From Gammaproteobacteria bacterium (lineage in GTDB: Bacteria > Pseudomonadota > Gammaproteobacteria > Xanthomonadales > Wenzhouxiangellaceae), in contig JAJFKY010000016.1 in the NCBI GenBank assembly GCA_021772975.1, forward strand, positions 310,001 to 374,000: a stretch of DNA of 64,000 nucleotides, given 5' to 3'. Within the stretch, counting starts at the first letter, position 1; each line of letters begins with the position of its first letter. Shown here piece after piece: positions 16,015-55,869 of this stretch. Both the position numbers and the translations under genes were made by a program. Under the pieces are notes generated by a model. The model did not search any database. It was not told the origin of the DNA and saw only the letters and a program-made list of their open reading frames with translations.

Positions 16015-16053
16015 CTCACGTCAGTCAGCACGATGGTAGCCGAGCCACTGCGC

Positions 16054-16590: not shown

Positions 16591-16699
16591 GCTGTTATTG
16601 TACGTCACTCGCCGCTGTTTGCCGCAGCCAGTCGCCGTTGTCGGATATCAACATTCATTTTCGTCCCAATCATTTATTTAATTACTGGTTTATTGTGTT

Positions 16700-18076
16700 A
16701 TGTCTAAACAATCTCTAGCCACCGCTGCCAACGATTCGGCCGCTTTTGATCCGCGACAATTACAGGATGCCGTTAGCCTGGCGCTTTCACAGGCCGGCGA
16801 ACTGGGTGCTGATGCCGCTGAAGCCGGGGTGTCCGCGCAACAGGGGCTGACTGTGACAGTGCGCCTGGGTGAAGTGGAAACGGTCGAACACAACCGTGAC
16901 CGTACCTTGACCATCACCGTCTACAAGGGCCGCCGTAAAGGCACCGCCAACTGTGGTGATATTCGTGACGCCAGTATTCGTGAAGCAGTTGCCCACGCAT
17001 GTGCCATCGCCACCCATACCGAAGCCGATCCAGCTTCTGGTCTGGCGGAGCCGGAGCAACTGGCTACGATTTTTTACGAGTTGGATATGTGGCATCCGTG
17101 TGAGCTTACGCCAGATCAACTGATAGAGCGCGCCCTGACTATCGAGCAGGCCGGCCGGGAAACGGACGCCCGGATTCGCAATTCAGACGGCGCCAGTATT
17201 GGCAGCAGTCAGGCCATGGGTGTGTATGGCAATACGCATGGTTTTATCGGCGCTGTGCAAGGCACCAGCTATTATCAAAGCGCGGTGTTGATTGCGGCTG
17301 AAAAGAGCAACTCGGAAGCCATGCAGAGTGATTATGCCTGGGACAGTAAACGCCGCTTTGAGTCACTGCAAAGCCCGGAGGCCACTGGCCGGAAAGCCGC
17401 CGAGCGCAGCTTGCGGAAACTGGGTGCGCGTCCGATAAAAACCATGCATGCGCCCATTTTGTTTAATGCGCGTTCGGCGCGCACACTGCTTGGGCATATG
17501 GTCAGTGCGGTATCGGGTGGTGCGCTATACCGCAAATCCTCGTTTTTGCGTGGTTATGCCGGCCAGCAGATTTTTCCGGAGTTCATCCATATCAGCGAAA
17601 ATCCGCATCAACGTTGTGGCGTGAACAGTTCAAGTTTTGACAGTGATGGGGTGGCCACCGGGTTGCACAATGAACTGGTCAAAGACGGTGTGTTGGAGCG
17701 TTACATACTCGGCACCTACTCAGCCCGGCGGCTGGGCATGACCTGCACCGGTAACGGCGGGGGAGTGCGTAATTTGCGTGTTCAGCCGGGCCAGCAGAGT
17801 TTTACTGAGTTGATCGAGCAAATGAACACAGGCCTGATTGTAACGGACGTCATGGGCCATGGCGTGGATGCCGTAACGGGTGACTATTCCCGCGGCGCGA
17901 CTGGATTCTGGGTGGAAAACGGTGAAATTGTTCACCCGGTAGAAGAAGTGACCATCGCAGGCAATCTGCGCGATATGTATGCCAATCTGCTGGCGGTTGG
18001 GAATGATTTGGATACCCGTAAAAACCAGCAGACACCATCCTGGCTGCTGGCGCCGATGATGATTGCAGGCAGTTAA
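16700..18076 (+). CDS. pmbA: metalloprotease subunit PmbA (TldE)
   Basis: 458 aa. This is the TldE partner of TldD and lacks the HExxxH motif, as expected of the non-catalytic subunit. Family hallmarks are GLTVTVRLGEVETVEHNRD near the N-terminus, AYRKSSFLRGYAG-like sequence in the middle (residue order ALYRKSSFL), and the C-terminal DVMGHGVDAVTGDYSRGATGFWVENGEI segment, here broken by positions 387-414. It is divergent from darP. The TldD/E complex matures microcin B17 and CcdA in E. coli. No terminator with a clear T run follows; there is only a small TTCGCT/AGCGAA hairpin at 18086-18101. Confidence 0.96.
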   Translation: MSKQSLATAANDSAAFDPRQLQDAVSLALSQAGELGADAAEAGVSAQQGLTVTVRLGEVETVEHNRDRTLTITVYKGRRKGTANCGDIRDASIREAVAHACAIATHTEADPASGLAEPEQLATIFYELDMWHPCELTPDQLIERALTIEQAGRETDARIRNSDGASIGSSQAMGVYGNTHGFIGAVQGTSYYQSAVLIAAEKSNSEAMQSDYAWDSKRRFESLQSPEATGRKAAERSLRKLGARPIKTMHAPILFNARSARTLLGHMVSAVSGGALYRKSSFLRGYAGQQIFPEFIHISENPHQRCGVNSSSFDSDGVATGLHNELVKDGVLERYILGTYSARRLGMTCTGNGGGVRNLRVQPGQQSFTELIEQMNTGLIVTDVMGHGVDAVTGDYSRGATGFWVENGEIVHPVEEVTIAGNLRDMYANLLAVGNDLDTRKNQQTPSWLLAPMMIAGS

Positions 18077-18454
18077 ACTGCATGTTTCGCTGTTAAGCGA
18101 AGTGGAGTAGTTGTCATGCCGAACCAGGCAAGACCAGTACCGAGAATGTGTTGAAACGCAGTGGTGTTAATCCAGTCATTCACATTTTGAAGAGCCGGAT
18201 AAGCAATGCTTGCCATACTGAGTTAAGTGTAGACAGGCATCACGGCATACTGAATAATGTGCTGTAGCAAGCTGAATTGAACAGGCGGGATTATGGCCAT
18301 AATGTATGGGATGACTTTTGGACCAACTGCACAAATCCGGGAACAGCGCTCCGGATTGATTGATTTGCGCGTCCGGGTAAAAAGCAATACAGATTGCTGT
18401 TGACCGCCTTATTCAAGCAATAAGAATCATCCACTCAAAAGCTATCCATAGATC
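18077..18454. other. 378-base gap after pmbA without a gene
   Basis: No open frame of convincing length or composition is present. The only structure I see is the small hairpin at 18086-18101 just after pmbA. The gap marks the boundary between the conserved housekeeping block and the A+T-richer accessory region. Confidence 0.6.
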
Positions 18455-19042
18455 ATGTTATCCAGCAAAAAAATATCCTCGGACCTACCCTGGAAGTTGC
18501 TCACTATCGAAGCTGTTCTGGTGGTTTTAAGCGTGCTGCTGGCGCTTGCTCTCAGCAGTTGGTTGCAGTCCCGGTCCGATCAGGTTCTGGCGCAGCGGGG
18601 CTTACAGGAATTTATGGGTGAAATACACACAAACTGTGCACGGATAACCACTGCTCATGCATACCATGAAGCTGTCGCAAGCGGTGCGAGTGAGCCACGC
18701 GGCATACAGGTCGGTTTGCTGCGTAATGATGCCTGGGACTTTGCCAAAACCACCGGAGCAGCACAGCATCTGGAGCATGACGTGGTGGCCAAGCTGGTCG
18801 AGATCAATGCATATCAGAGTGATCACAGGACTGTTGTGCAGGCTTATTTACAGGCCTTGTTTAACATAGGTCTGCAGCTCGAAAAGGAAGAAAAATGGCA
18901 TCAGGAGGGTGAGCGGGGGGTGATTAGTGAACTGGTTCGTATTCAATCAGATTTACTGGAGCAGTACCACGGTCTGTTAGCGCTGGTGGATGAGCATTAT
19001 CAGGGCTCGATTGAGACCCGGAATGTGTGTGGCAAAAGCTGA
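18455..19042 (+). CDS. small membrane-anchored protein of unknown function
   Basis: 195 aa. One N-terminal hydrophobic segment (about residues 17-37, IEAVLVVLSVLLALALSSWL) is followed by a soluble, mainly helical domain. The layout recalls a broad group of short proteins with one transmembrane helix ending in a Trp and then a helical domain, but I cannot assign a family. It is the last plus-strand gene before the convergent FlhC-like gene. A weak hairpin (stem GCTGTTG/CAACAGC, 19085-19109) lies between the two. Function unknown. Confidence 0.65.
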   Translation: MLSSKKISSDLPWKLLTIEAVLVVLSVLLALALSSWLQSRSDQVLAQRGLQEFMGEIHTNCARITTAHAYHEAVASGASEPRGIQVGLLRNDAWDFAKTTGAAQHLEHDVVAKLVEINAYQSDHRTVVQAYLQALFNIGLQLEKEEKWHQEGERGVISELVRIQSDLLEQYHGLLALVDEHYQGSIETRNVCGKS

Positions 19043-19156
19043 TGAAACAGGCCATTTTGAGCGTGGCCAGCCCGGGCCGGTAATGCTGTTGTGGTTTTAC
19101 TGCAACAGCAGCGGTGTGTTTTCAAATAAGCCCTGATCAATTATTTTTGCAACGAT

Positions 19157-19762
19157 TTATTTGTTCCGGTTTTTTGCCGCCCGGCAATCGCCGCACAGCT
19201 TTATTCTTCTTCCAATGCCTGTTTGTTTAAGTACTTTATTGCATTTTTGGCAGCGGTAGAGTTGTTGAATTTTACAGGCGGGGCACAACTGGTCGATATC
19301 GGTTAGCGGGCCAATGAAATTAACTTTACATCGCTTGCATGCGCGTACATCCCATGCGCCAATCAGCAGAAGCTGGGGTACAAAGTAGCTCCGGTGAATA
19401 TCCAAAATCGATCTACCCACGGCATGGGTATAACATTGATACAAGTTTATCAGGTGCTGTGCAGGCTCCTGGTCATCTGATCTCAACCTGCATTCCAGTT
19501 TCCATATTACGTTTGCGTGTAGCATGCGCTGTTCGGTTTGCAAGTACCAGGTGTCGGTAAAGGGATTCAGGCCGGGCGGTGAAGCCCGGCCGTGAATATA
19601 CTGATACAGTTCCTTGACTGGTGATTTAGGCAGTCCGGTTAATTGGACAACCAGCCCGGCTCTGGCACCCAGCTCAATCAGTTGAAAAGCCTGAGCTTTC
19701 TTTAAACAGTCATGATCGTGACTCCAAACCCAACTGTTTGATGACGAACTAAAGTAAGCCAC
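19157..19762 (-). CDS. FlhC-like transcriptional regulator with an extra zinc ribbon
   Basis: 201 aa, GTG start at 19762 preceded by GAGG. Residues 24-90 resemble FlhC: AFQLIELGARAGLVVQLTGL, then KELYQYIHGRASPPGLNPF, then a W-x5-Q segment. FlhC's zinc site is recognisable as C142-x2-C145 and C160-x2-C163, with a second CxxC pair beyond it (C171/C174 and C190/C193) that I read as an added zinc ribbon. The start lies 12 bases after the stop of a FlhD-like gene, the same gene order as flhDC. No flagellar genes are in the window. An FlhC-family protein is well supported; a role in controlling the adjacent RiPP genes is inference. Confidence 0.8.
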   Translation of the reverse strand: MAYFSSSSNSWVWSHDHDCLKKAQAFQLIELGARAGLVVQLTGLPKSPVKELYQYIHGRASPPGLNPFTDTWYLQTEQRMLHANVIWKLECRLRSDDQEPAQHLINLYQCYTHAVGRSILDIHRSYFVPQLLLIGAWDVRACKRCKVNFIGPLTDIDQLCPACKIQQLYRCQKCNKVLKQTGIGRRIKLCGDCRAAKNRNK

Positions 19763-19774
19763 CAGTCACCTCTA

Positions 19775-20071
19775 TCAGCTTTCAATAAAGTAAAAGCTGG
19801 TTTGTTCCGCGAGCGCTTTTATCTCGTTGCGGTTATCGTCTTTTAGGGCGCGCAGGAAGTTTGCCCACCAGGTGGATTCTTCTCTGGGTATGATCAACGG
19901 AACATTGACATTACTGATATTGGCGAGTTGTTTTGGTGAAAGATTTGCGATAGACCGCATGAAATCCGTTGACGTGCCTAAGTGCGTTGAGGCTGTAATC
20001 ATGTTGTGATTTGCGAAATCTCTGGCTGCAATAAAATACTCCAGGTTAAATTTTGAAAAATTCATATCCAT
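19775..20071 (-). CDS. FlhD-like transcriptional regulator
   Basis: 98 aa. The ATG at 20071 has GGAG about nine bases upstream. FlhD-like features are the N-terminal FNLEYFIAARDFANHN helix, the LGTSTDFMRSIANLSPKQLANI region (compare the LG-x-LTLPQMVKLA part of E. coli FlhD) and a C-terminal helix with LIIPR and FLRAL. It is shorter than E. coli FlhD (~116 aa). Its stop is 12 bases before the FlhC-like start, so the two probably form a heteromeric complex as FlhD4C2 does. Family assignment is by motif pattern and gene order, so it is less certain than for the FlhC-like partner. Confidence 0.75.
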   Translation of the reverse strand: MDMNFSKFNLEYFIAARDFANHNMITASTHLGTSTDFMRSIANLSPKQLANISNVNVPLIIPREESTWWANFLRALKDDNRNEIKALAEQTSFYFIES

Positions 20072-20696
20072 ATTAAATCTCCAAACTTAACACTCCCGCT
20101 CGTGGTACAAACCTCCAGATACAGAAGTTGAGCGCTTGAGGCTGGTGTACTCGCTGTCAGGCTGCTAAGTGATTGGTGTGTCATCCATGACAAAATAAGT
20201 CTGCTCCTTTGGTTAAATTTTCGTGATGTTGCCGGTGAGTTGAGCTGGTTATAAACAAAATCTTAAGGCATTGGCTGGTGCCTGCGCTGCCTGCAAGCCC
20301 TGACTGTATGATCAACACAAGCTGATTTAAATGATCTATCCGAAACCACCGTGAACACGCTGAGTACTATCGCATATCGAGCGTATAAAAAAAGTATCGA
20401 AAGCACGAGCCGTTGCTTAATTTTTCGTTGAATTTAAGCTGGGTGCGATGCGTTAAGCTGGCTGATTGGGCGGCGGCGCGGCCGGATGAAGGCGCTTTTG
20501 TTCTCGCTGCTGCGGAAATAATGGGCTGATAGGGCCGCGGTTATCCACTCACCACGTTAGTGGTCGGAAAAGTCAAATTGAATGCCGACTTTTCTCAATT
20601 GTTTGAGTAGCTATTGAAGGCAATACTGGAATCCGACTTGTAACGCTCAACCCGCATTATTAAAAGCTCGTTAATTTAATCAACGAGGATCATACG
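20072..20696. other. 625-base divergent intergenic region between the FlhD-like gene and the RiPP genes
   Basis: It should hold the promoter of the minus-strand FlhDC-like pair and that of the plus-strand small ORF/ATP-grasp genes. A clear hairpin GAAAAGTC-N12-GACTTTTC spans 20567-20594. I see no convincing gene: one open stretch near 20440-20530 has coding-like composition but no start with a ribosome-binding site. A CAATACTG octamer near 20620 resembles part of the precursor promoters but lacks the rest of the pattern. Confidence 0.55.
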
Positions 20697-20903
20697 TTGC
20701 CGCCAAAGCTGTCGGCTGAACATGAATCTGTGCTGGTGCGGATAAAGCCCGAACAATTGGTCAGTGTAATTGATCTGGCCAATTATTTCGGGCAATCAGC
20801 CCGGGCCATCAGTCCGGGCAGCGGATATTCAGCCGTCACCCGGGCTGCAGCAGGGCACAGACAGTGGCTAGGCCGGGCGCGGCTACATAAACCTGGAGTA
20901 AAC

Positions 20904-21062
20904 ATGAAAAATCAACCGATTCAAAAACCAGACAAGCTATTGCGAAGCAGCGATGCGGCGCGTCCGCTGGCCCGTATTTTAGCCCGCGAGTTACCCGAGC
21001 AGGTCATCCAGACACTGGTTAATGCGAACAGCAAGGACAAGCATCAACGGCGTTCGCGCTAA
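20904..21062 (+). CDS. small basic peptide upstream of the ATP-grasp gene, possible RiPP precursor
   Basis: 52 aa from the ATG at 20904, which has TGGAG five bases upstream. The peptide is polar and strongly basic at its C-terminus (KDKHQRRSR), with a central helix-like stretch (ARPLARILARELPEQVIQTL). It ends 28 bases before the ATP-grasp start and is probably co-transcribed. Position suggests a substrate or partner of that enzyme, but it lacks the Thr/Ser-plus-acidic core repeats of well-known graspetide precursors. The frame also stays open upstream to a TTG at 20697 with GAGG before it, which would give 121 aa; which start is used is unresolved. No family recognised. Confidence 0.5.
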   Translation: MKNQPIQKPDKLLRSSDAARPLARILARELPEQVIQTLVNANSKDKHQRRSR

Positions 21063-21090
21063 TCCTATAAGCACAATCAAGGAGACAATT

Positions 21091-22191
21091 ATGCACAAGC
21101 GCCCGTTGATTCTTTCGCCGCACTGGGATATCGGTGCGGCTGCAGTCCGCTGGGGGTTGGTCAAGAACGGAATCAACCCTGTCTGGTCAGCTTCGCTGGC
21201 TGAGAGCGCTATCGGCCCGCTAACGCTATACGGGAGTGACCAGTCAGAATGGCGTATGCGCAGCAATATCGATGGGTCATGGTTAAGTTCCGTCTGGTTT
21301 CGGCGGCCGCGAAAGCCCAAAGAGTTTCCTATGGCTCGCGCCTGTGATGCTGAGTGTTTGCGCATGGAATGGTCACTGCTGCATGACAATGTCTATGCCT
21401 TGAGCGATGAACTCAGTAATGTGCTGTGGATCAATACGCCAGCCGCATCAAAGCTGACGGAAAATAAGCTGGTGCAGCTGCGCGTGGCCCGGCAGTGTGG
21501 TTTACGCTTTCCGGAAACACTGGTTTCCAATAACCCGATTGATATCAGGCACTTTATCAATAAGCATGGCCGCGTGGTATACAAGGGTTTTTCGCGGTAC
21601 ACCTGGAAACAGGCATCGTCTGGGAGGATGTTTGCGCAATGGGTTAATACGCTTGATTCCGGCACTGAACTCGATGATGCATCACTGGCATTATGCCCAG
21701 GCGTATATCAGCCTTATGTTGACAAGAAGTGCGATGTGCGGGTGACTGTCGTAGGTGATCAGGTTTTTGCCATACAACTGAGTTCGGGGCAAGGTGATGG
21801 ACTTGTCGATTGGCGGCAACACGCGCTGACGGAGAAAGTTCAGGCGCACCAGTTAACGCTTCCAGACGCATATCAGTGCAAGCTTAAGCAGTTAATGCAA
21901 CGGCTAGGCATAGTCTATGGCTGTATAGATCTGGTGATAGATGCAGATGACCAGATTTACTTTCTGGAAGTGAATCAGGCGGGTGAATTTTTGTTTGTCG
22001 AAGAATTGGTGGATTGCATGCCCATGCTGCAAGCCATGTGCGCCATGCTGGCAACGGGCCGTACCGACTACTCGCTTGAAGCCTTATCGGCTGTTTCCTA
22101 TCGAGAATATCTGGACTCAGAGTCTTTTGCTGAATGGCATAGCAAGGTTAAAGATGACATGCATGCCGACACCAGGGTAATTCTTGAGTAA
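21091..22191 (+). CDS. ATP-grasp ligase of the RiPP-maturase (MvdC/MvdD-like) type
   Basis: 366 aa from the ATG at 21091, which has GGAG six bases upstream; a further in-frame start at 21022 lies inside the preceding small ORF and is rejected. The ATP-grasp fold shows KLTENKLVQLRVARQCGLRFPET (a central-domain start, residues about 117-139), VVYKGFSRYTW, the VDKKCDVRVTVVGDQVFA strand pair, the DWRQH motif and the metal-binding FLEVNQAGEF. These match the ATP-grasp enzymes that make lactones and lactams in microviridins and other graspetides. It lies between a small ORF and the lanthipeptide precursor/synthetase genes, so it may act on either type of peptide. The true substrate is unknown. Confidence 0.85.
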   Translation: MHKRPLILSPHWDIGAAAVRWGLVKNGINPVWSASLAESAIGPLTLYGSDQSEWRMRSNIDGSWLSSVWFRRPRKPKEFPMARACDAECLRMEWSLLHDNVYALSDELSNVLWINTPAASKLTENKLVQLRVARQCGLRFPETLVSNNPIDIRHFINKHGRVVYKGFSRYTWKQASSGRMFAQWVNTLDSGTELDDASLALCPGVYQPYVDKKCDVRVTVVGDQVFAIQLSSGQGDGLVDWRQHALTEKVQAHQLTLPDAYQCKLKQLMQRLGIVYGCIDLVIDADDQIYFLEVNQAGEFLFVEELVDCMPMLQAMCAMLATGRTDYSLEALSAVSYREYLDSESFAEWHSKVKDDMHADTRVILE

Positions 22192-22327
22192 TAAAAGTCG
22201 TCTGCCGGATTGCCGTGCAATGAACAGCAAGGGTGCGGGCCTGCTGTTGAGCTATCGCAACCCTGAGGCATTATCTGCTGTTTCCAGCGGTGTAGCGAAG
22301 TTAATGCCCAGCTTATTGCTGCAATAA
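22184..22327 (+). CDS. possible 47-residue ORF overlapping the end of the ATP-grasp gene
   Basis: The frame opens at a TTG (22184) six bases after AGGG and overlaps the ATP-grasp stop by eight bases; an internal ATG at 22220 would give 35 residues. The product has a hydrophobic C-terminal half (LLLSYRNPEALSAVSSGVAK and onward). No family recognised. The overlap with the preceding stop and the position ahead of the precursor gene are the only reasons to list it. It could equally be the relic of a larger gene or chance. Confidence 0.25.
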   Translation: MSNKSRLPDCRAMNSKGAGLLLSYRNPEALSAVSSGVAKLMPSLLLQ

Positions 22328-22554
22328 TCAAGCAGCGGCTTGTCTCACGTTTTAGTTAACGGCGGATAGCTGATGTTCAGCCAGGGCGGTTTTGAAAAGT
22401 GCCTGATGTTTAGCCGTTGTAGTCAATTCTACTGACCATTTTGTGCAGGCTTATCTGTTGCTGATCATCCTATTCAATTTATTTACGCTGTTTTTCAGCA
22501 AGCTCTTGGTTTAGTGCTTGAAAGCGCTTGCAGGAGACTGCGCTTTTACTATTG
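22328..22554. other. gap before the first precursor gene
   Basis: Together with the following promoter region, about 330 bases separate the last possible ORF from the precursor gene at 22655. I see no gene or clear repeat here. The sequence is A+T-rich with short poly-T runs. Confidence 0.5.
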
Positions 22555-22629
22555 TTACCGAATGCTCGATCGAAAATACTGTCTTTACGCCTTCAATTAA
22601 GAAGGTTCCAACGGTGACTGGGATGTCAC
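22555..22629 (+). promoter_or_regulatory. conserved promoter/operator region of precursor gene 1
   Basis: TTACCG (22555-22560), 16 bases, TACTGT (22577-22582), 31 bases, then the palindrome GTGAC-N6-GTCAC (22614-22629), which ends 25 bases before the ATG. The same parts with the same spacings occur before the other two precursor genes. The first two hexamers resemble a weak sigma-70 -35/-10 pair. If so, the palindrome lies in the 5' leader and could be an operator or an RNA hairpin. Confidence 0.7.
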
Positions 22630-22654
22630 AACAACTTATTGATAGGAGATGGTC

Positions 22655-22774
22655 ATGGAAAATATTCTTGCATTACAACAACTAACTGCTCATCAGGCAA
22701 CGGGTCCAATGGATATGGCTGGCAGCTTCGCCAGTATAGGCTGTGATGGTGATCCGGAGCATCAGGAAAAATAG
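22655..22774 (+). CDS. class III lanthipeptide precursor 1
   Basis: 39 aa, with AGGAG six bases before the ATG. The leader (about residues 1-22) starts MENILALQQL, close to the LxLQxL-type leader motif recognised by class III synthetases. The core holds MAGSFASIGCDGD, in which S24, S27 and C30 form the Ser-x2-Ser-x2-Cys pattern that class III enzymes turn into labionin or lanthionine. The tail is PEHQEK. It differs from the other two precursors mainly between residues 11 and 20. The LanKC gene follows about 150 bases later, after a hairpin. Identification rests on the motif, three-fold repetition and the adjacent synthetase. Confidence 0.87.
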   Translation: MENILALQQLTAHQATGPMDMAGSFASIGCDGDPEHQEK

Positions 22775-22815
22775 CTGCCACAGTGTTTTTTTTAGATCAA
22801 AAAATTAAATAATCG

Positions 22816-22854
22816 TGCGGGCGGGCAGCATTTAAGACGGCTTCCCGACCCGCA
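22816..22854 (+). terminator. hairpin between precursor 1 and lanKC, possible attenuator
   Basis: TGCGGGCGGG (22816-22825) pairs with CCCGACCCGCA (22844-22854) with one bulged base and an 18-base loop. There is no T run immediately after it. It could limit read-through from the abundant precursor transcript into the synthetase gene, or stabilise the precursor mRNA. Its right arm overlaps the upstream ATG at 22854, which argues against that codon as the LanKC start. Confidence 0.45.
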
Positions 22855-22925
22855 TGTCTTTAAAACCAACAGCCATCACGGCGTGGAATCATACGCAGTG
22901 TGCGGCAATCAGTAAGGTATCTAAC

Positions 22926-25643
22926 ATGGACTGTTTTAATCATGAGTCTTATACTGGACGATCAGATGGCAGGAATGCCTTCCTTTACACATTGGCCAGC
23001 AGCGAATATTTTGAGCCACTCGAAAAAGCCACTGCAATTGGCGATTATCAGGATTTGTTGCGTAACTATCTGCCGCGTGACTGGGTTCTGAAAAAAGCCG
23101 GACTTTGGTACCATGGCGCGCCATCCGAATCTGTTTTACCGTCAAGTGGATTCAAGCTGCACCTTTCCGCAACCCTTGATAACGCTGAACGGATTCTGTC
23201 GATTGTGGCGCCCATTTGTATTGCCGAGCGTGTCACCTTTAAGGTTATACAGTCTGCTAATCTGCTTGCGGTGGCAAACTCTAAATTCTTCCCGCGTGCG
23301 GCAGCGCATAAATTTATCACCATATACCCTGGATCAACGGACCAGTTTATTGCCTTATCTGAGTTGTTGAACGTTAAGACGCAAGCGTATGCCGGGCCAT
23401 ATATTCTGTCGGATAAGGCTGTTAGGGATAGCAAGGTGCTGTTTTACCGCTTTGGTGGATTTTTACCGGTTGCTCAACTAACGGTTCAGGGGGGTAAAAG
23501 ACTATTGATTCAGGCGCCGGATGGTCGATGGATAGATGATCTCAGAGTGCCGTACTTTCGATTGCCTGATGGGGTAACCGATCCATTGGCGTCCGGAAAC
23601 GCTGCCGGGCCGGCGGCGCAGGTGGTTTTGCATTCGCGCTATCAAATCATTGAGGTGATCACTTTTTCCAACTGTGGCGGTACTTATGTGGCCAAAGACT
23701 TAGAGTCTGGAGAAGAAGTACTGGTTAAAGAAGCCCGCCCGCTGGCGACGCTCTCACATATCCCGAAATGGCGTTTTTATGCTAAAGATGCGATGTTGAG
23801 AGAGCAAAGAATACTTAAGAAATTATCCTCGTTAGCCTGTGTGCCGGATGGTATTGAGTGCTTTGCAGAAGCCGGGCATACTTTTTCGGCTCAACAATTT
23901 ATCCAGGCACGGCCATTCAGGCAATATCGGGCGCAAGACAATATAGCGCTTATTCCGTTTGACGGTGACGGGCAAAAGGCAGATCAATTCTGTCACGCGT
24001 TTTGCAGGCTTGGATCGAATCTGATCAGATCGGTACTGGCCGTTCACAGGCGGCGGGTCATTATTGGTGATATATCTCCGGGCAATATCCTGGTAGACGA
24101 TTCGCAGGATGTTTATCTGGTGGATTTCGAGAGTGCCTGGGACAGGTCCTGGTCAAGCCAGGCTGATGAGTTGTCTTCAGTCTGGATGACGCCTGGGTTT
24201 AGTCCTGGTAAGCGTAGCAAACGCCGTCAGGTTAGTTATCAAGACGATTGGTATGCCGTGGGTATGGTTCTGTTCAGTATGCTGCTGCCGGTCAGTCGTT
24301 TGAATTCATTATCGCCAGGTGCGCACAATCGGTTTTTGGATGCCATCATTACCGCCGCGAAATTACCGGCCTGGGTTGCGCGAACAATTCGGCTATTGAC
24401 CGAGGCAAGGCCGCAGGCTGCATTGAAAATCCTGGAGTCGCACAGTCAACCCGGTTCATTGCATGCTAAGCATAGCCGGGTCAGTCAGCGCAAAGTCAAG
24501 CCAATAGATGCTTTGGCATTACGGGAGCTGACCACCACAACAGTGTCCCGGATATCAGCGCACATACTGGCCAGCTGTGATTTGAAACGTCAGGACCGGT
24601 TATGGCCATCCGATTATAAAGTATTCTCAACCAACCCCTTGAGTATTGCCTATGGCGCAGCGGGTCCCTTGCTGTTTCTGAAGCAGAATGATGTGGAGAT
24701 TCCGCACAAGATTGACCGGTGGTTCTGTCAGCAACCTGTCTCATTGGCTGAATATCCGCCAGGTCTTTATCTCGGTCTTGCCGGCGTTGCGTACACGCAC
24801 TGGCAGATCGGTCATAAAAACCGGGCTGTTGAAGCGCTTCGAATGGCTTTTCAATCTGAGCTTTTATATAACGACTGGGGAATGTTCTACGGGGCGGCAG
24901 GGTGCGGGCTGGTCAGTCTGCAGATGTACCTATGGACCAATGATGAGTTATTCCTTCACAAGGCCATTGAGATTGGCATAGCGGTTATCAACAATGCACG
25001 GCAGACCGAGCATGGGGTTGCCTGGCAGGACAGTCTGGGTGAAAAGATAGTCCCCGGATTTGCCTATGGCGCAAGCGGAGTGGCGTTATTTTTGCTGTAC
25101 CTGAGCCTGATCAGTCAGGACAAGAAATTTCTTGGCTATGCCAAAAAAGCTCTGGAGCACGAGATCGGGTCAATCAGTAGCGAATATCCTGCCAGCCAGC
25201 CCCGCTGGACCATGGATGGAAAACCCGGTGTGTGGACGCCTTACTGGCTACAGGGAGGCTGTGGCATTGGCAGTACCATGATCAGATTTTACACTGTCCT
25301 TGGGGACGATAGTTATCTGGCGCTGGCGCGGTCCATCGCGCGTGCTAACTATTCGCGTTTTGCAGTGCTTTCCGCACAGTTTGAGGGGCTGGCGGGCGTG
25401 GGCGAGTTGATGCTGGATATCAGCATGTGCACGGGTGAGCGAGAATTTGAAGATAAGGCACAGGAGATTGTCGAAAGCATCCATTTATATCAGCTTAAAA
25501 CCAAGACCGGGGTGGCATTTCCTGGCCGGTATCTATCTCGAATCAGTCATGATTTCGGCTACGGAAGCAGTGGTGTTGGCATGTTCCTGGGGCGATTTCT
25601 GAATAGAGGGAAAAGGCTATTACATGATCTGGACGGGCTATAG
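22926..25643 (+). CDS. lanKC: class III lanthipeptide synthetase LanKC
   Basis: 905 aa from the ATG at 22926, which has TAAGG about eight bases upstream; an in-frame ATG at 22854 lies in a hairpin without a ribosome-binding site. Three domains are expected: an N-terminal phospho-Ser/Thr lyase-like region (about 1-210), a Ser/Thr kinase (about 235-510) with K268 (VLVKEARP), D382 and N387 (GDISPGN) and D400 (VDFES), and a LanC-like cyclase (about 555-905). The cyclase has the Gly-rich repeats FYGAAGCG, AYGASGVA, QGGCGIG, EGLAGVG and YGSSGVG, but not the Cys/Cys-His zinc ligands of LanC and class IV enzymes (FEG stands where CHG would be). This points to class III. It phosphorylates Ser, eliminates phosphate and cyclises onto Cys. 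Confidence 0.9.
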   Translation: MDCFNHESYTGRSDGRNAFLYTLASSEYFEPLEKATAIGDYQDLLRNYLPRDWVLKKAGLWYHGAPSESVLPSSGFKLHLSATLDNAERILSIVAPICIAERVTFKVIQSANLLAVANSKFFPRAAAHKFITIYPGSTDQFIALSELLNVKTQAYAGPYILSDKAVRDSKVLFYRFGGFLPVAQLTVQGGKRLLIQAPDGRWIDDLRVPYFRLPDGVTDPLASGNAAGPAAQVVLHSRYQIIEVITFSNCGGTYVAKDLESGEEVLVKEARPLATLSHIPKWRFYAKDAMLREQRILKKLSSLACVPDGIECFAEAGHTFSAQQFIQARPFRQYRAQDNIALIPFDGDGQKADQFCHAFCRLGSNLIRSVLAVHRRRVIIGDISPGNILVDDSQDVYLVDFESAWDRSWSSQADELSSVWMTPGFSPGKRSKRRQVSYQDDWYAVGMVLFSMLLPVSRLNSLSPGAHNRFLDAIITAAKLPAWVARTIRLLTEARPQAALKILESHSQPGSLHAKHSRVSQRKVKPIDALALRELTTTTVSRISAHILASCDLKRQDRLWPSDYKVFSTNPLSIAYGAAGPLLFLKQNDVEIPHKIDRWFCQQPVSLAEYPPGLYLGLAGVAYTHWQIGHKNRAVEALRMAFQSELLYNDWGMFYGAAGCGLVSLQMYLWTNDELFLHKAIEIGIAVINNARQTEHGVAWQDSLGEKIVPGFAYGASGVALFLLYLSLISQDKKFLGYAKKALEHEIGSISSEYPASQPRWTMDGKPGVWTPYWLQGGCGIGSTMIRFYTVLGDDSYLALARSIARANYSRFAVLSAQFEGLAGVGELMLDISMCTGEREFEDKAQEIVESIHLYQLKTKTGVAFPGRYLSRISHDFGYGSSGVGMFLGRFLNRGKRLLHDLDGL

Positions 25644-26050
25644 TCCAGATCAATCTCCCCGTATTCGGGCTTGTCCAAGGCTGCTGGTGCCGGCGGTCAA
25701 TAGCTGGATTACGGACTATGCTGTCGTTGGGTGTACCGCGGTTGTGATGATGGTCACTCGTATCAGGCTCGGTAGCTGTTACCTGAGGAATCTCTGATTT
25801 AATCCGACAAGGCCGCTCCCACCAGGGGTTACGCACGAAATGGTCCAATCCTGCGTTGCGTTGCCTGGCTATAGACCGGCTATTGCACTGCGCAAAGACG
25901 CCTTGTCTTGGACCATTTCGTACCCCCAGGTAAATTATATGGTGCGGTCATGGCAGATAAATCAAAGGTTACCTAAAAGCATGCACGGCTATGAATTAAG
26001 CATAACCATGATGGGAAAAGGCCCCGTTTTGCCGCTATCTTTCAGGCTTT
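25644..26050. other. gap between lanKC and precursor 2
   Basis: About 500 bases including the next promoter region. The only clear structure is the inverted-repeat element at 25835-25921. The open frame across it has no ribosome-binding site and runs through the element and the promoter of precursor 2, so I do not call it a gene. Confidence 0.55.
25835..25921. repeat. 87-base hairpin element with perfect 14-base terminal inverted repeats
   Basis: The arm ACGAAATGGTCCAA (25835-25848) is the exact reverse complement of 25908-25921. The interior is G+C-rich and contains further short complementary segments (GCGTTGC and GCAAAGACGC). It looks like a small non-autonomous palindromic repeat (REP/MITE-like) dropped between lanKC and the second precursor. 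I see no second copy in the window. Confidence 0.7.
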
Positions 26051-26125
26051 TTATCGTGCTGGAGAAGGTCAATACTGTAATCGCAGCTTCAGTATGGAAG
26101 GTGCCTCGTGTGACGAGAGTGTCAC
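26051..26125 (+). promoter_or_regulatory. conserved promoter/operator region of precursor gene 2
   Basis: TTATCG (26051-26056), 16 bases, TACTGT (26073-26078), 31 bases, GTGAC-N6-GTCAC (26110-26125), then 25 bases to the ATG. In this copy the extended palindrome is TGTGAC-N6-GTCACA. An additional inverted pair ATACTG-N12-CAGTAT overlaps the -10-like element. Confidence 0.75.
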
Positions 26126-26150
26126 AATTGTTTAGCTATTGGAGATTATC

Positions 26151-26261
26151 ATGGAAAATGTACTTTCATTGCAGTATTTGAAAGCCGACGAAGGCAAAAG
26201 CAACAACGAAATGGCCGGCAGTTTTGCCAGCCTGGGTTGTGATGGTGATCAGGAACGGTAA
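26151..26261 (+). CDS. class III lanthipeptide precursor 2
   Basis: 36 aa, with GGAG six bases before the ATG. The leader begins MENVLSLQYL and is followed by a charged spacer (KADEGKSNNE). The core is MAGSFASLGCDGD with S24, S27 and C30, identical in position to precursors 1 and 3; the tail is QER. A strong factor-independent terminator follows at 26306-26346, so this gene is probably a monocistronic unit with its own promoter. It shares more sequence, coding and upstream, with precursor 3 than with precursor 1, consistent with a recent tandem duplication. Confidence 0.88.
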   Translation: MENVLSLQYLKADEGKSNNEMAGSFASLGCDGDQER

Positions 26262-26305
26262 AACTGTTCTTTGCTATAGCTTACATCAATCGTAAGCGAC
26301 CAGAA

Positions 26306-26346
26306 GGGCCGGCAAGCATGAATAATGGCTTGCCGGCCCATTTTTA
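26306..26346 (+). terminator. factor-independent terminator after precursor 2
   Basis: A 12-base stem (GGGCCGGCAAGC, 26306-26317, pairing with 26328-26339) with a 10-base loop is followed by ATTTTTAT. It isolates precursor 2 from precursor 3. Confidence 0.85.
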
Positions 26347-26575
26347 TGTAAACAGGCAAACCCAAAGTGTCGCTGGGGAAATAATCTAAACTGCTTTACT
26401 TTGTAAAAAGACTGAATAAATACAATTGCCTGCTGCAAATATAGAACAATATAATGCTAACCAAACCTGTCTAGCCAGTTTAGGGTGGTTCATGCATTTT
26501 AACTGGACACGCATCCTGCTGCTGAATTTCAGACCCTATCGAAAAGATACGTGTCATGTCGATCTTTTGCGCTTT

Positions 26576-26650
26576 TTATCAGCTCATCTCTAGTCAATAC
26601 TGTAATTGCATTTTCAATGCGGAAGATGCCTCAAGTGACGAGCATGTCAC
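26576..26650 (+). promoter_or_regulatory. conserved promoter/operator region of precursor gene 3
   Basis: TTATCA (26576-26581), 16 bases, TACTGT (26598-26603), 31 bases, GTGAC-N6-GTCAC (26635-26650), then 24 bases to the ATG. Between the terminator of precursor 2 and this region (26347-26575) I see nothing else of note. Confidence 0.75.
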
Positions 26651-26674
26651 GACCTTTTAAGTATGGAGATAATT

Positions 26675-26794
26675 ATGGAAAATGTACTTTCTTTACAGCA
26701 CCTGAAGTCTGATGAAACCACCAACAACGCAGAAATGGCCGGCAGCTTTGCCAGTCTGGGTTGTGACGGTGACCAGGCCCTGAATGACAGCTAA
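26675..26794 (+). CDS. class III lanthipeptide precursor 3
   Basis: 39 aa, with GGAG eight bases before the ATG. The leader MENVLSLQHL is followed by the spacer KSDETTNNAE, the core MAGSFASLGCDGD (S24, S27, C30) and the tail QALNDS. The core is identical to that of precursor 2, while the spacer and tail differ. Modified products of the two would therefore share the ring region and differ at the C-terminus. It lies about 110 bases before a Sel1-repeat membrane protein gene. Confidence 0.88.
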   Translation: MENVLSLQHLKSDETTNNAEMAGSFASLGCDGDQALNDS

Positions 26795-26902
26795 GCACAT
26801 AAGCTATTAGTTGTAATGCGGGACTTATGATGCAACAGGTTCGCATGATTTGTCCCGCATTTTTAATGCTGGTAGCAGTGTCAACGGATCAGGTATAGTA
26901 GC

Positions 26903-28327
26903 TTGGATACACCGACAGTCATTATCAGAGAGGCCATAAAAGCGGTGCCTGCAGTCAGGTATGCTCTGGGTATAGGCGGTCTTATTGGTGTCATATCGTT
27001 ACTGTTTGTATTCCAAATAAGCCCTGTTGTCGCGGTTTTAGGCTCGGTGGTTCTGTTCGTGCTGATGGGGCTGCTGGTTACGTTTGCCAGGGTGGCAACG
27101 CTTAAAAGTAATAAATTAACGCTGCCCGCGGTTGTTTTCACCTGGTTTATATTGATCATATTTATTGCGGTGACAACGGTATTGTTTAGCTCCGTTTTTT
27201 TTAGGCGTCCAGTTGATCTCCAGTTTTGGGTTATCAATAAAAATGATATCGTTATGCTGGATGGGGCGAGCGTTAATCTGCGCAGACGTAAGAACCAAAC
27301 CCAGGAAAATGCTTTGGGGGAAGCCTATCAACTGGGTAAATTTAGTAAAAAAAACCTTTCAAAAGCAGCTTTCTGGTACCAGAAAGGTATCGATAAAGAT
27401 GACCCTGAATCAATGGCAGATATGGCAGCGATGCTGGGGCTTGGTGTGGGTGTCCCGCAGGACATAGACAAAGCCATTGAGCTTTTCTTAAGAGCGGGAA
27501 GGATGGATAACGGGCCCAGGTTATATAAAACAGGGTTGTATTATCGGGAGAAAGATCAGTTTGAAAAAGCGCTCGGTTATCTGCAAAAAGCGCTAAAGCA
27601 AAAATATACTCCCGCCTATGCCGCTATTGGACGCATGCACGAAAATGGTGATTTCGGCAAAGAAAACATAACCGAAGCGGTTGGCTGGTATCTAAAAGGC
27701 GCGAGTTCTGGTGATCCTGATTCGATGTACAATCTGGCAACTTTGTACTTTGCGGGGGAGATGGTCCAAAAAAACCCTAAAGCGGCCATTAATCTGCTGG
27801 AAAAGGTTATCAGAAAGAAAGATTATGATAACTCTGCCACGGCCATGTGGGTGCTGGGTGAATATTATAATACTGAGGACCTGGCGGTTTATGACCCGCA
27901 GAGAGCCATAAAGCTGTATAGGCTGGCTATGCGCCAGGGGCAACCTTGCGCCAGGGTGGCATTGGCTGATGCGCTCATTTCCGAGTCACCGTTTTACCTT
28001 CAGGATGCCGTTAAAATTATTCGTGAGGGGGTCAGGGAGAAGCAGGTCCAGTCCATATTTTATTATGCAAAGAACCTGCTTGAAGGCAATGGCTTCAGGA
28101 AGAACGCAGTGCGTGCGGAAAGATTGCTGAAAATTGGCGTTGATCTTGGGCATACCGGCAGTATGTTGCTGCTTGCCAATGCTTATGAGACTGGGCTTTT
28201 TGGAGAACCGGATTTGCCTGCCGCGGAAACCTACTACCAATTGACCGCGGAGAGTGCGGCCGAAGACATCAAGTGGCACGAAAAACAAATATTAAGAATT
28301 AAGCATATTGACAATTGCCAGTATTAA
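26903..28327 (+). CDS. membrane-anchored Sel1-repeat protein
   Basis: 474 aa, TTG start at 26903, the only reasonable start before the first membrane segment; the ribosome-binding site is weak. The N-terminal ~105 residues contain three hydrophobic segments. After residue ~130 come tandem Sel1-like/TPR repeats of about 36 residues, recognisable by A-x-x-G-x-x-Y/L and A-x2-W-Y/F (for example AAFWYQKGIDKDDPESMADM and AVGWYLKGASSGDPDSMYNL). Sel1 proteins are adaptor scaffolds. It directly follows precursor 3 on the same strand and shares the A+T-rich character of the RiPP region, so it may belong to that system, but no precise function can be given. Confidence 0.8.
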   Translation: MDTPTVIIREAIKAVPAVRYALGIGGLIGVISLLFVFQISPVVAVLGSVVLFVLMGLLVTFARVATLKSNKLTLPAVVFTWFILIIFIAVTTVLFSSVFFRRPVDLQFWVINKNDIVMLDGASVNLRRRKNQTQENALGEAYQLGKFSKKNLSKAAFWYQKGIDKDDPESMADMAAMLGLGVGVPQDIDKAIELFLRAGRMDNGPRLYKTGLYYREKDQFEKALGYLQKALKQKYTPAYAAIGRMHENGDFGKENITEAVGWYLKGASSGDPDSMYNLATLYFAGEMVQKNPKAAINLLEKVIRKKDYDNSATAMWVLGEYYNTEDLAVYDPQRAIKLYRLAMRQGQPCARVALADALISESPFYLQDAVKIIREGVREKQVQSIFYYAKNLLEGNGFRKNAVRAERLLKIGVDLGHTGSMLLLANAYETGLFGEPDLPAAETYYQLTAESAAEDIKWHEKQILRIKHIDNCQY

Positions 28328-28531
28328 GCAAGCTCTGATTTAATCTGACACGGTCTTTGTTGATGCACTCGGCAGAGCCCATGATAGGAGTTCAAACCAG
28401 TCAGAGTTATGACCTTGTGGTATAGGTAATTGCTGTATTCAGATTGCCTTGCTATAGTGGCCAATCACCTCCTGCGCTCCGCTTCAACCTATGTATTGAA
28501 GTCCGGGCGCGGCTCTGCAGGAGAATTAGCC

Positions 28532-29212
28532 ATGTCTTTTTTACCGCAACATCCGCAACGCTTGACACAGTGGCTTCTGATAGCCCTGACGGCAGGTGTA
28601 TGGGCATTATTGCTGGAGTCTTATCTGCCTTGGGTATCCGCCAAACAAACCGTTGCGCCATCAGCGGCAACATTTGCAACACTTTCAGTACAACGGATCA
28701 ATGTTGTTGATCCCGACGGCAGCATTCGTCTGGTAATCGCCAACAGCGAGCATTTCCCCGATGCAATCCTGAGGGGCAAATCTTATACAAGAAGTATCGA
28801 GGATGCCGTAGGCCTGATTTTTTACAACCAAGACGGTAACGAGTCCGGGGGGCTGGGGCTGAGCAGACTGGCGGATAAAAATCAGAGTGCGCTTATTTTC
28901 GATTATACCCATCAACCGACCGATGGCATTGGCATGTACAAACGCGAGAGTGAAGATGGCAAGCAGTTACAGGCCGGTCTTTTTATCAGTGATCGCCGCC
29001 CCTTTGTGGCGGGGGAGTTGGTCAGCACTCAAGGCGTCGAGCGTATCTCTTTGTCCAACCAGGATCAGGACGCCAGTCTGATCATTTCTGACGCACAGGG
29101 TCAGCCCCGGATAAGTATTGGTGTTGATAAAACAGGTGAGCCGCGTATAGAGCTAATGGATGCTGCCGGTCAGGTTGTCTATCAGGCGGGTCAGGAGTCA
29201 GCAGGAGAGTAA
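28532..29212 (+). CDS. membrane-anchored protein of unknown function
   Basis: 226 aa from the ATG at 28532, which has AGGAG about nine bases upstream; an in-frame ATG at 28430 lacks a ribosome-binding site. One N-terminal membrane helix (about residues 13-33) is followed by a beta-rich soluble domain with repeated short motifs of the type VVDPDGSIRLVI, LIISDAQGQPRISI and IELMDAAGQVVYQA, each containing a turn-forming D/G pair. This suggests a repeated beta-hairpin fold. No family is recognised. It is separated by about 200 bases from both neighbours. Confidence 0.65.
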   Translation: MSFLPQHPQRLTQWLLIALTAGVWALLLESYLPWVSAKQTVAPSAATFATLSVQRINVVDPDGSIRLVIANSEHFPDAILRGKSYTRSIEDAVGLIFYNQDGNESGGLGLSRLADKNQSALIFDYTHQPTDGIGMYKRESEDGKQLQAGLFISDRRPFVAGELVSTQGVERISLSNQDQDASLIISDAQGQPRISIGVDKTGEPRIELMDAAGQVVYQAGQESAGE

Positions 29213-29997: not shown

Positions 29998-30306
29998 ACC
30001 TGCCTCGTTCAGGTCGGATTGGCTCAATCTTGACAGAGAGTCCGGTGTAGACCCGGCGTAGGTTGGATCAGTGTCGCAGATGTGTCATTCAACGACAGCC
30101 GCTGTATAGTCACCTGGCGCGGTCATCATGTATGATCTCCGGAGGCTGGCGGGGTCAGTCGGAAAATAAGGCCACCTAAGCATTAAGCAGCCTGAGTCTG
30201 GTTGGGGATTAAAGCGGTTCCCACGGGTTGATTCAGCCAATGCCAATGTTTGGTTATCGTTCAGACCTCCAATACCATCATTCACATCAGATTTGTTATT
30301 CATCGC
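29998..30306. other. 309-base gap before the restriction-modification operon
   Basis: No gene or clear repeat is seen. It should contain the hsdM promoter. Confidence 0.5.
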
Positions 30307-31875
30307 ATGTCAGAAGAGCATAAAAAGAATCTCAAGTCCCGACTCTGGGATATCGCCAATACCCTGCGCGGCAAGATGGGCGCGGATGAGTTCCGCGACT
30401 ATATCCTGGGTTTTATTTTCTACAAATACCTCTCGGAGCGGATGCATTGGTTCGCGGATGAGATTCTGCGGCACGACGGCATCACCTTCGACGAGATTGA
30501 TGAAACCAGTGCCGAGGGGCAGCAAATGCTTGCCGCCATCGAAGAAGAATCCGTGGAGGGGCTGGGTTATTTTCTCAAGCCGTCCGAACTGTTTCACAAG
30601 CTTGCCGAAAAGGGTGCCCGCAAGCAGGATAACTTTATCCTCGAAGACCTCGGCAGCATCCTCAAGCACATCGAGGGCAGCACCATGGGGCACGCCAGCG
30701 AGGAGGACTTCGAGGGGCTGTTCGAAGATCTCGACCTCGGCTCCTCCAGGCTGGGCAAAACCGAGAATCAGAAGAACGAACTGATCGCCAGGGTGCTCGT
30801 CCATCTTGATCAGATTGATTTCCGGCTTGAAGATACCGAGTCTGATGTGCTCGGCGACGCCTACGAATATCTTATTGGCCAGTTCGCCAGTGGCGCGGGT
30901 AAGAAAGCGGGTGAGTTTTATACGCCGCAACAGGTCAGCACCATCCTCGCCAAGATCGTCACCACCGGGAAGACCAGCCTCAAGAACGTCTACGATCCCA
31001 CCTGCGGCTCCGGTTCGCTGCTGCTGCGGGTGGCCAGGGAGGTCGAGGAAGTCGGCGGCTTTTACGGGCAGGAGATGAATCCCACCACTTATAACCTGGC
31101 GCGGATGAATATGATCCTGCACGGTGTGCATTACCAGCGCTTTGACCTGCGCAACGAGGACACCCTGGAGCATCCCGCGCCCGAGCATGCCGATCTGCGC
31201 TTCGAAGCCATCGTCGCCAATCCGCCCTTCTCCGCCAGGTGGTCGGCCAGCGTCGTCCACGAGAATGACGACCGTTTCAGCGCCTATGGCAGACTCGCGC
31301 CCAAGACCAAGGCCGACTTCGCCTTTGTCCAGCATATGGCGCACCACCTCGACCATGGTGCGACCATGGCTTGCGTGCTACCCCACGGCGTGCTGTTTAG
31401 GGGCGCGGCCGAGGGACATATCCGCCGCTACCTGATTGAGGACTGTAACTGGCTTGATGCCGTTATCGGCCTTCCAGCCAATATCTTCTATGGCACGGGC
31501 ATTCCGACATGTATTCTAGTGCTCAAGAAACAACGCGAGAATCCTGACGACATCCTGTTTATTGATGCCAGCCAGCATTTTGAAAAAGTCGGTAAAGATA
31601 ACCGGCTTCGCAGCGAGGATATCGAGCGCATCGTCAGCACCTACCGGAAGCGGGAATGCATCGAGAAATTCAGCCACGTCGCCGAGCTGAGCGAAGTCGA
31701 GGAAAATGACTACAACCTCAATATCCCGCGCTATGTCGATACTTTTGAAGAAGAGGAGTTGGTCGATCTGGCGGCGGTATCGGACAAGCTGATGGCCCTG
31801 GAAAAAGAGATGGGCGATAATGACAAAGTTATCGCGGGGTTTTGTAAGGAGTTGGGAATCAAGGCGCCGTTTTGA
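30307..31875 (+). CDS. hsdM: type I restriction-modification system methyltransferase subunit
   Basis: 522 aa from the ATG at 30307; the family N-terminus begins MSEEHKKNLKSRLWDIANTL, which rejects an in-frame upstream ATG at 30250. The N-terminal helical HsdM_N domain (about 10-150) is followed by the N6-adenine methyltransferase domain with SAM motif DPTCGSGSLLLRV (about 235) and catalytic motif NPPF (about 306). It works with HsdS to methylate adenine at the target site and joins HsdR for restriction. The stop overlaps hsdS (TGATG). This is the first gene of the hsdM-hsdS-fic-hsdR operon. Confidence 0.96.
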   Translation: MSEEHKKNLKSRLWDIANTLRGKMGADEFRDYILGFIFYKYLSERMHWFADEILRHDGITFDEIDETSAEGQQMLAAIEEESVEGLGYFLKPSELFHKLAEKGARKQDNFILEDLGSILKHIEGSTMGHASEEDFEGLFEDLDLGSSRLGKTENQKNELIARVLVHLDQIDFRLEDTESDVLGDAYEYLIGQFASGAGKKAGEFYTPQQVSTILAKIVTTGKTSLKNVYDPTCGSGSLLLRVAREVEEVGGFYGQEMNPTTYNLARMNMILHGVHYQRFDLRNEDTLEHPAPEHADLRFEAIVANPPFSARWSASVVHENDDRFSAYGRLAPKTKADFAFVQHMAHHLDHGATMACVLPHGVLFRGAAEGHIRRYLIEDCNWLDAVIGLPANIFYGTGIPTCILVLKKQRENPDDILFIDASQHFEKVGKDNRLRSEDIERIVSTYRKRECIEKFSHVAELSEVEENDYNLNIPRYVDTFEEEELVDLAAVSDKLMALEKEMGDNDKVIAGFCKELGIKAPF

Positions 31876-33086: not shown

Positions 33087-33116
33087 AATTAGGAATTAAT
33101 TGAGAGGAAAGAGGGG

Positions 33117-33376: not shown

Positions 33377-33434
33377 CGCCTGATTCAAAACTCCCCTGCT
33401 TGACCCATAACTTGACTGATGGTTTACTGATTCC

Positions 33435-55792: not shown

Positions 55793-55869
55793 TGCGGGGT
55801 GGAGCAGTCTGGCAGCTCGTCGGGCTCATAACCCGAAGGTCGCAGGTTCGAATCCTGCCCCCGCTACCA
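55793..55869 (+). tRNA. initiator tRNA-fMet (anticodon CAT)
   Basis: 77 bases with CCA. The anticodon arm TCGGG-CTCATAA-CCCGA has the three G-C pairs diagnostic of initiator tRNA, and the first base pair of the acceptor stem is mismatched (T opposite T; in E. coli C opposite A), also an initiator feature. The T-arm is GCAGGTTCGAATCCTGC. A factor-independent terminator follows. The 3' end from 55834 is repeated downstream. Confidence 0.95.

What the first reader, a model, noticed from the sequence alone, without database searches (positions are those of the whole stretch)
22655..26794. Class III lanthipeptide locus with three precursor genes in a gammaproteobacterial context
Three ORFs of 36-39 codons share MEN[IV]L-x-LQ-x-L leaders and an invariant MAGSFAS[LI]GCDGD core starting at the same residue (21) in each. 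S24-x2-S27-x2-C30 fits the labionin/lanthionine pattern of class III RiPPs, and a LanKC with intact kinase residues lies among them. Class III systems are best known from actinobacteria and firmicutes (established knowledge), so a clean example here is unusual, and this core is one I do not recognise.
Basis: partly seen in the sequence, partly recalled or inferred. Interest (0 to 1): 0.9.

Follow-up and report, generated by a model that had tools for sequence, protein, structure and literature searches.

The report
Class III lanthipeptide locus, gammaproteobacterium
A bacterium from a group where such genes are rare carries a small gene set that very probably makes short ring-bearing peptides of a known family, and the peptide genes share an unusual folded leader.

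Summary
Three short ORFs flank a full LanKC gene (22854-25643; likelier start 22926). The enzyme passes the NCBIfam class III cut-off but not the class IV one, has all three domains, conserved kinase residues and no zinc ligands. Among 61 relatives only the window's genome and one same-genus MAG have it (LanKC 57% identical). That MAG has four precursors; all seven keep the leader pattern M-x2-[VI]-x2-L-x2-[LI] and core GS-x-AS-[LI]-GCD. So this is a class III lanthipeptide locus: a new member of a known kind. It is rare (own genome only, 1 of 398 sampled phylum genomes) but not the first in gammaproteobacteria: Lysobacter lanKC is in print.

Beyond the finding: five of seven precursor genes carry a tandem-hairpin 5' leader with two-sided compensatory changes at 9 of 13 pairs; its model hits only those five sites in 41 genomes. 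The locus lies in a low-GC stretch with a FlhDC-like pair, although flagellin and FlgH searches found nothing. Ring chemistry, leader protease, export and function are unproven.

The parts
22655..22774 (+). precursor peptide gene 1 (LanA1), 39 aa, leader 1-20, core from residue 21
   Evidence: (NF038159 21.5 bits, cut-off 30)
22854..25643 (+). class III lanthionine synthetase LanKC: RamC_N lyase, kinase, zinc-less LanC-like cyclase; likelier start 22926 (905 aa)
26151..26261 (+). precursor peptide gene 2 (LanA2), 36 aa
   Evidence: (24.1 bits)
26675..26794 (+). precursor peptide gene 3 (LanA3), 39 aa
   Evidence: (27.6 bits)
22584..22644 (+). tandem-hairpin 5' leader of LanA1; -10-like AATACT just upstream with TTGTTA 17 nt before it
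26080..26140 (+). tandem-hairpin 5' leader of LanA2; AATACT with GCTTTTTA 17 nt before it
26605..26665 (+). tandem-hairpin 5' leader of LanA3; AATACT with GCTTTTTA 17 nt before it
21022..22191 (+). ATP-grasp peptide maturase-like gene (likelier start 21091, which has an AGGAG upstream); conserved neighbour, probably its own graspetide-type unit
20904..21062 (+). small ORF before the ATP-grasp gene, motif ARPLARILARELP shared with the relative
19775..20071 (-). FlhD-like protein, candidate regulator
   Evidence: (25.9 bits, cut-off 27)
19157..19762 (-). FlhC-like protein, candidate regulator; the only FlhC hit in the genome
   Evidence: (49.8 bits, cut-off 27)

Best explanation
A class III lanthipeptide locus. 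Three near-identical precursor genes are transcribed as short units of their own. LanKC binds the helical leader (M1, V/I4, L7, L/I10 face), phosphorylates Ser24 and Ser27 with its kinase domain, eliminates phosphate with its lyase domain to give two dehydroalanines, and its metal-free cyclase lets Cys30 attack, closing one ring (lanthionine Ser24/Ser27-Cys30, or labionin joining all three) followed by an acidic tail (D-G-D). A protease and exporter encoded elsewhere finish the peptide. Several copies with one core and a structured 5' leader point to high dosage of one product, such as a signal or surface peptide, rather than to chemical diversity. Shown: genes, domains, motifs, conservation. 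Inferred: every chemical step, processing, export and function.
For: LanKC above the class III cut-off and below the class IV one; three Pfam domains over their gathering scores; closest solved chains are LanKC enzymes (8sam, 8sap and others); kinase Lys, catalytic Asp/Asn and metal-binding Asp aligned, zinc-ligand positions of LanL replaced; leader hydrophobic pattern and S-x2-S-x2-C in 7 of 7 precursors (the pattern as quoted from PMC12328550); purifying selection on six genes; precursors, LanKC and ATP-grasp gene each found in the same 2 of 61 genomes; nearest plasmid-borne LanKCs (Deinococcus, 31%) have multicopy precursors with the same S-x2-S-x2-C spacing.
Against: No precursor of the six scanned reaches a curated family cut-off (16.1-27.6 bits against 30). 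No transporter or dedicated peptidase was seen among the ORFs next to the genes, whereas an ABC transporter gene follows LanKC in both Deinococcus loci. No expression data. Both genomes are known only as assemblies; the named relative is a MAG.
Confidence: 0.88

Rival explanations
1. Hybrid peptide: the adjacent ATP-grasp enzyme also works on the same precursors, joining the conserved acidic tail (CDGD/E) to a Ser, Thr or Lys side chain, so the product carries both a thioether ring and an ester or amide ring.
For: ATP-grasp gene conserved beside the precursors in both genomes and absent from the other 59 relatives, like LanKC; it resembles graspetide maturases (TIGR04187 175.7 bits; PDB AMdnB and CdnC); the acidic tail is conserved; the small ORF before it in the window has no obvious core.
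Against: TIGR04187 cut-off (350) not reached. A small ORF with an R-x-[LM]-A-x-[QI]-LA-[RK] motif precedes the gene here, in the relative, and in Bradyrhizobium and Legionella loci where the annotated stretch shows no LanKC, so it probably has its own substrate.
Confidence: 0.08
2. The LanKC makes only linear dehydrated peptide or plain lanthionine, not labionin.
For: The core Ser-to-Cys spacing is x2; the passages seen quote Sx2Sx3C and say that it gives lanthionine in some peptides and labionin in others (PMC7268733). Residues that decide labionin are not conserved by sequence (PMC10604976).
Against: Both serines and the cysteine are invariant in 7 of 7 precursors.
Confidence: 0.35
3. The two inverted repeats upstream of each precursor are DNA operator sites (for instance for the FlhDC-like pair or another regulator) and not RNA hairpins.
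For: Dyad symmetry produces the same two-sided changes; GTGAC-N6-GTCAC is identical in the three window copies and occurs 8 times in the genome against 3 for the reversed control.
Against: Half-sites differ between genes (GTGAC, GTAAC, ACGGC); G-U pairs, which break DNA symmetry, make up 6 of 40 cells in hairpin 1; the five other genomic GTGAC-N6-GTCAC sites were not seen to share a setting.
Confidence: 0.3
4. The three ORFs are chance repeats without product.
For: Short; none reaches a curated family cut-off.
Against: Conserved across two species with excess synonymous change, tied to LanKC.
Confidence: 0.02

Closest known systems
Class III lanthipeptide systems (LanKC), e.g. ThurKC of Bacillus thuringiensis
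   Same: Lyase-kinase-cyclase order, no zinc ligands, leader with an L-x-LQ type motif, S-x2-S...C core (ThurKC: passages of PMC10604976).
   Different: Different phylum; one short acidic core with S-x2-S-x2-C; no transporter or protease seen beside it; tandem-hairpin 5' leaders.
lanKC loci of Lysobacter (gammaproteobacteria)
   Same: Class III cluster in a gammaproteobacterium, precursor and LanKC genes (passages, PMC9410377; PMC11451712; PMC10380237).
   Different: Their sequences were not retrieved here, so core, enzyme clade and surroundings could not be compared.
LanKC loci on Deinococcus plasmids (D. gobiensis P4; Deinococcus sp. QL22)
   Same: Best-scoring plasmid-borne LanKCs (395 and 382 bits against 265 or less for the rest), nearest rows in the tree by path; several precursors with S-x2-S-x2-C.
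   Different: 30-31% identity only; cores WSTVSNHC or WSTSSYGC; ABC transporter after LanKC; LuxR-type regulator instead of FlhDC-like pair.
NCBIfam NF038159 (lanthi_III_b) precursors
   Same: Best-matching precursor family for 6 of 6 scanned.
   Different: All below the curated cut-off (16.1-27.6 of 30 bits).

Membership tests
Class III lanthionine synthetase (LanKC) | Whole-protein match over the curated class III cut-off and not over the class IV one | tested here: met
   638.2 bits (cut-off 575); class IV 461.9 (cut-off 650)
Class III lanthionine synthetase (LanKC) | Lyase, kinase and LanC-like domains in one chain | tested here: met
   RamC_N 171.4, Pkinase 38.7, LANC_like 53.8 bits, each over its gathering score
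Class III lanthionine synthetase (LanKC) | Zinc ligands of the cyclase absent (as stated in PMC7268733, and PMC12328550) | tested here: met
   LanL HWC and CHG positions read YWL and FEG in the window and its relative
Class III lanthionine synthetase (LanKC) | Kinase residues kept | tested here: met
   VKEARP, GDISPGNIL and VDFES align with the corresponding stretches of the other LanKCs, (roles of residues recalled)
Class III lanthionine synthetase (LanKC) | Dehydration and ring formation | not testable with these tools
   needs co-expression and mass spectrometry
Class III lanthipeptide precursor | Leader pattern of hydrophobic residues every third position (quoted in PMC12328550) | tested here: met
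   M1, [VI]4, L7, [LI]10 in 7 of 7
Class III lanthipeptide precursor | Core S-x2-S-x(n)-C | tested here: met
   S24-x2-S27-x2-C30 in 7 of 7; n is 2, while the passage quotes 3
NCBIfam NF038159 lanthi_III_b subfamily | Curated score cut-off of 30 bits | tested here: not met
   0 of 6 scanned precursors reach it (21.5, 24.1, 27.6; 23.9, 19.5, 16.1); the seventh was not scanned
Pfam RamS (SapB precursor) | Gathering score 24.3 | tested here: not met
   13.4, no hit, 16.1 bits for the three window precursors
Graspetide maturase (neighbouring ATP-grasp) | Curated cut-off of TIGR04187/04184/04185 | tested here: not met
   175.7 of 350, 144.2 of 475, 143.3 of 425 bits
FlhDC flagellar master regulator (neighbouring pair) | FlhC and FlhD domains over gathering score | tested here: inconclusive
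   FlhC 49.8 of 27 met; FlhD 25.9 of 27 just missed
FlhDC flagellar master regulator (neighbouring pair) | Flagellar genes to regulate | tested here: not met
   flagellin PF00669 in 0 of 1 genome, FlgH PF02107 in 0 of 2; other flagellar genes not searched

The most novel reading that the evidence does not exclude
The precursor genes are controlled by a new cis-acting RNA element: a tandem hairpin (8-bp stem with 6-nt loop, 4-5 nt linker, 5-bp stem with 6-nt loop) placed where the mRNA should start, specific to these lanthipeptide messages, acting as an mRNA stabiliser or regulated attenuator, in a locus governed by a FlhDC-like pair that has left the flagellar system.
Probability: 0.3. Interest if true: 0.6.

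Novelty: new member of a known kind. Interest (0 to 1): 0.42.

Why it matters
It gives a compact class III system from a gram-negative lineage where such loci are rare, with two divergent enzyme-precursor sets (57% identical LanKCs, seven precursors) that are ready for co-expression. The core is short and has only two Ser and one Cys in the conserved part, so it is a simple substrate for asking what decides labionin against lanthionine in a metal-free cyclase, which the authors of the ThurKC structure list as open (PMC10604976, passages). The tandem-hairpin leader and the FlhDC-like pair without detected flagellar markers are two testable regulatory leads.

Tried and rejected
Chance ORFs: rejected. 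Class IV or class II enzyme: class IV cut-off not reached, LanM model 60.5 of 304 bits. FlhDC-like pair as flagellar regulator: unlikely. GTGAC-N6-GTCAC as a genome-wide operator: 8 sites, 3 of them here, reversed control 3; ORF listings around the other five showed no common theme. Known RNA family: 12 kb around the locus gave one match, FourU, 23.4 bits against a gathering score of 60 and not at the leaders. Relatives elsewhere: precursor tblastn in plasmids gave only two chance-level matches, E 8 and 9; viral contigs none; the single genome-contig scan used two short peptide patterns and found only the same-genus MAG, so it does not show absence in Lysobacter, whose LanKC I could not retrieve.

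Results that weaken the leader reading: single-sequence folding energies are only mildly low (z from -0.23 to -1.92 in six leaders); one of five measures in the pair count is no better than shuffled (further pair types 14 against 13.7); a loose form of the architecture occurs at 216 of 127,880 window positions on both strands; two of seven leaders (both in the relative) lack hairpin 2 and were left out of the alignment; the promoter scan lists none of my proposed promoters, and lists hairpin 2 of gene 2 as terminator-like. Terminators after the precursors were seen by eye only.

Paper searches on regulation: FlhDC with lanthipeptide, three papers, listing only; stem-loop and untranslated region with lanthipeptide, listing held no lanthipeptide paper among the ten shown.
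Full report
Observation. The three ORFs and the LanKC gene are present at the stated coordinates. The three precursors are 39, 36 and 39 aa, and the M-A-G-S motif starts at residue 21 in each. The genes and about 72 nt before them form one repeat family. In the window's genome a precursor query finds these three and no other, and an alignment of six precursors finds three here and four in a same-genus genome, in 2 of 61 genomes in all.

The relative. G001 carries a LanKC of 660 bits. Its contig has the same length, 187,711 bases, as JAJFKX010000058.1, a gammaproteobacterial MAG, isolate OFTM154, found by name. Its LanKC is 57% identical to the window's. Four precursors lie between its ATP-grasp gene and LanKC (L006 14375-14497, 14763-14879, 15137-15241, 15591-15695, all minus strand). 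All seven precursors keep M1, L5, L7, Q8, M21, G23, S24, A26, S27, G29, C30 and D31. On six of them the mean pS/pN is 0.62/0.20 for ten leader codons and 0.62/0.09 for eleven core codons.

The enzyme. LanKC scores 638.2 bits with NF038151 (cut-off 575) and 461.9 with the class IV model (cut-off 650); Pfam finds RamC_N, Pkinase and LANC_like; the best solved chains by sequence are class III synthetases. In an alignment of 16 synthetases the kinase stretches VKEARP, GDISPGNIL and VDFES line up with those of the others, and the HWC and CHG positions of LanL are YWL and FEG. A tree of the same 16 rows pairs the window with its relative (100/100); its nearest rows by path are the two Deinococcus enzymes, on long branches, and the order among the window pair, Deinococcus and LanL is unresolved. 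The tree holds only plasmid-borne rows besides the two gammaproteobacterial ones.

Rarity and prior art. LanKC over the cut-off occurs in 2 of 61 relatives, 2 of 43 genomes of the family, 1 of 369 sampled class genomes and 1 of 398 sampled phylum genomes; in the last two the one is the window's own genome. In the class and phylum runs no more than two first-look candidates per genome were scored in the rows shown. Passages of PMC7268733 say that most LanKCs are from Actinobacteria and Firmicutes. Passages of PMC12328550 name Actinobacteria, Firmicutes and Myxobacteria for experimental class III clusters, and of PMC9576775 report modified class III peptide from Myxococcus fulvus. For gammaproteobacteria, passages report lanKC in Lysobacter (PMC9410377; PMC11451712) and raised expression of a class III precursor and LanKC in L. 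capsici (PMC10380237). So the locus is unusual but not the first.

The 5' leaders. Each precursor has an AATACT, AATAAT or AATTCT about 71-80 nt before its start codon; exactly 17 nt before it stands GCTTTTTA or a near form in five of seven (w2, w3, sB, sC, sD), TGTTTTAA in sA and TATTGTTA in w1. In five of seven a hairpin follows at about -67 and a second at about -40, just ahead of the AGGAG/TGGAG site. On the five, the named structure pairs 95.4% of cells, has two-sided changes at 9 of 13 pairs (shuffled mean 3.1, 0 of 500 as high), and slid versions pair 38.5-50.8%. A covariance model finds three sites in the window's genome and two in the relative, all at precursors, and none in the other 39 genomes. 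Two leaders of the relative have only a hairpin-1-like stem. If the -10 guess is right, transcription would begin at the foot of hairpin 1, which suggests (inference) an mRNA-stabilising or regulatory leader. A DNA operator remains possible.

Neighbours. The stretch 18.4-29.2 kb has a GC of 0.48-0.51 and GC3 of 0.50-0.56, against 0.56-0.57 overall and GC3 mostly 0.59-0.73 on both sides, which suggests foreign origin. A FlhD-like and a FlhC-like gene lie upstream on the other strand, also in the relative; FlhC has a single match in the genome, while flagellin (0 of 1) and FlgH (0 of 2) were not found. I infer a regulator of this locus or of something else than flagella; no binding evidence. An ATP-grasp gene of the graspetide-maturase kind stands beside the precursors in both genomes. 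A small ORF before it shares a motif with small ORFs before relatives in Bradyrhizobium and Legionella plasmids, so I read it as a separate peptide unit. No transporter was seen among the listed ORFs between 18 and 30 kb. TldD and PmbA, over their cut-offs, lie 14.6-18.1 kb; TldD/E removes leaders of other RiPPs from outside their clusters (PMC10885120, passages), so it is a candidate protease, untested; I take the adjacency itself to be an old housekeeping arrangement (recalled).

Function. Copies with one core argue for dosage, not diversity; the tail is acidic, unlike the hydrophobic SapB (recalled). Signal, surface-active or antibacterial roles are all open; I lean to a signal or surface role with low confidence.

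Noticed in passing
window 19157-20071: FlhC-like and FlhD-like genes beside the locus in both genomes, although flagellin (0 of 1 genome) and FlgH (0 of 2) were not found.
   Followed up: partly
window 20904-22191: Graspetide-type ATP-grasp gene with a small ORF before it whose R-x-[LM]-A-x-[QI]-LA-[RK] motif recurs in Bradyrhizobium and Legionella adelaidensis plasmids; in the window the small ORF has no clear core.
   Followed up: partly
window 18400-29200: Low-GC stretch (0.48-0.51) between higher-GC housekeeping regions; ORF 28430-29212 looks similar, by eye, to one on the other side of the block in the relative (L006 19610-19810).
   Followed up: partly
window 14572-18076: TldD and PmbA (TldE) protease genes close upstream, with a YjgA gene between them; candidate leader-removing protease.
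   Followed up: partly
window 30250-37372: ORFs that look like a type I restriction-modification set (HsdM, HsdS, HsdR) with a Fic-like ORF (33435-34442) between; judged by eye, not scanned.
   Followed up: no
window about 55859-56092 (minus strand): The same 47-nt stretch appears twice, 187 nt apart, in the hairpin scan output; short tandem duplication.
   Followed up: no
L006 8064-9455: JmjC/cupin-type oxygenase gene downstream of LanKC in the relative (Pfam JmjC_2 over gathering score); not seen at the window locus.
   Followed up: no
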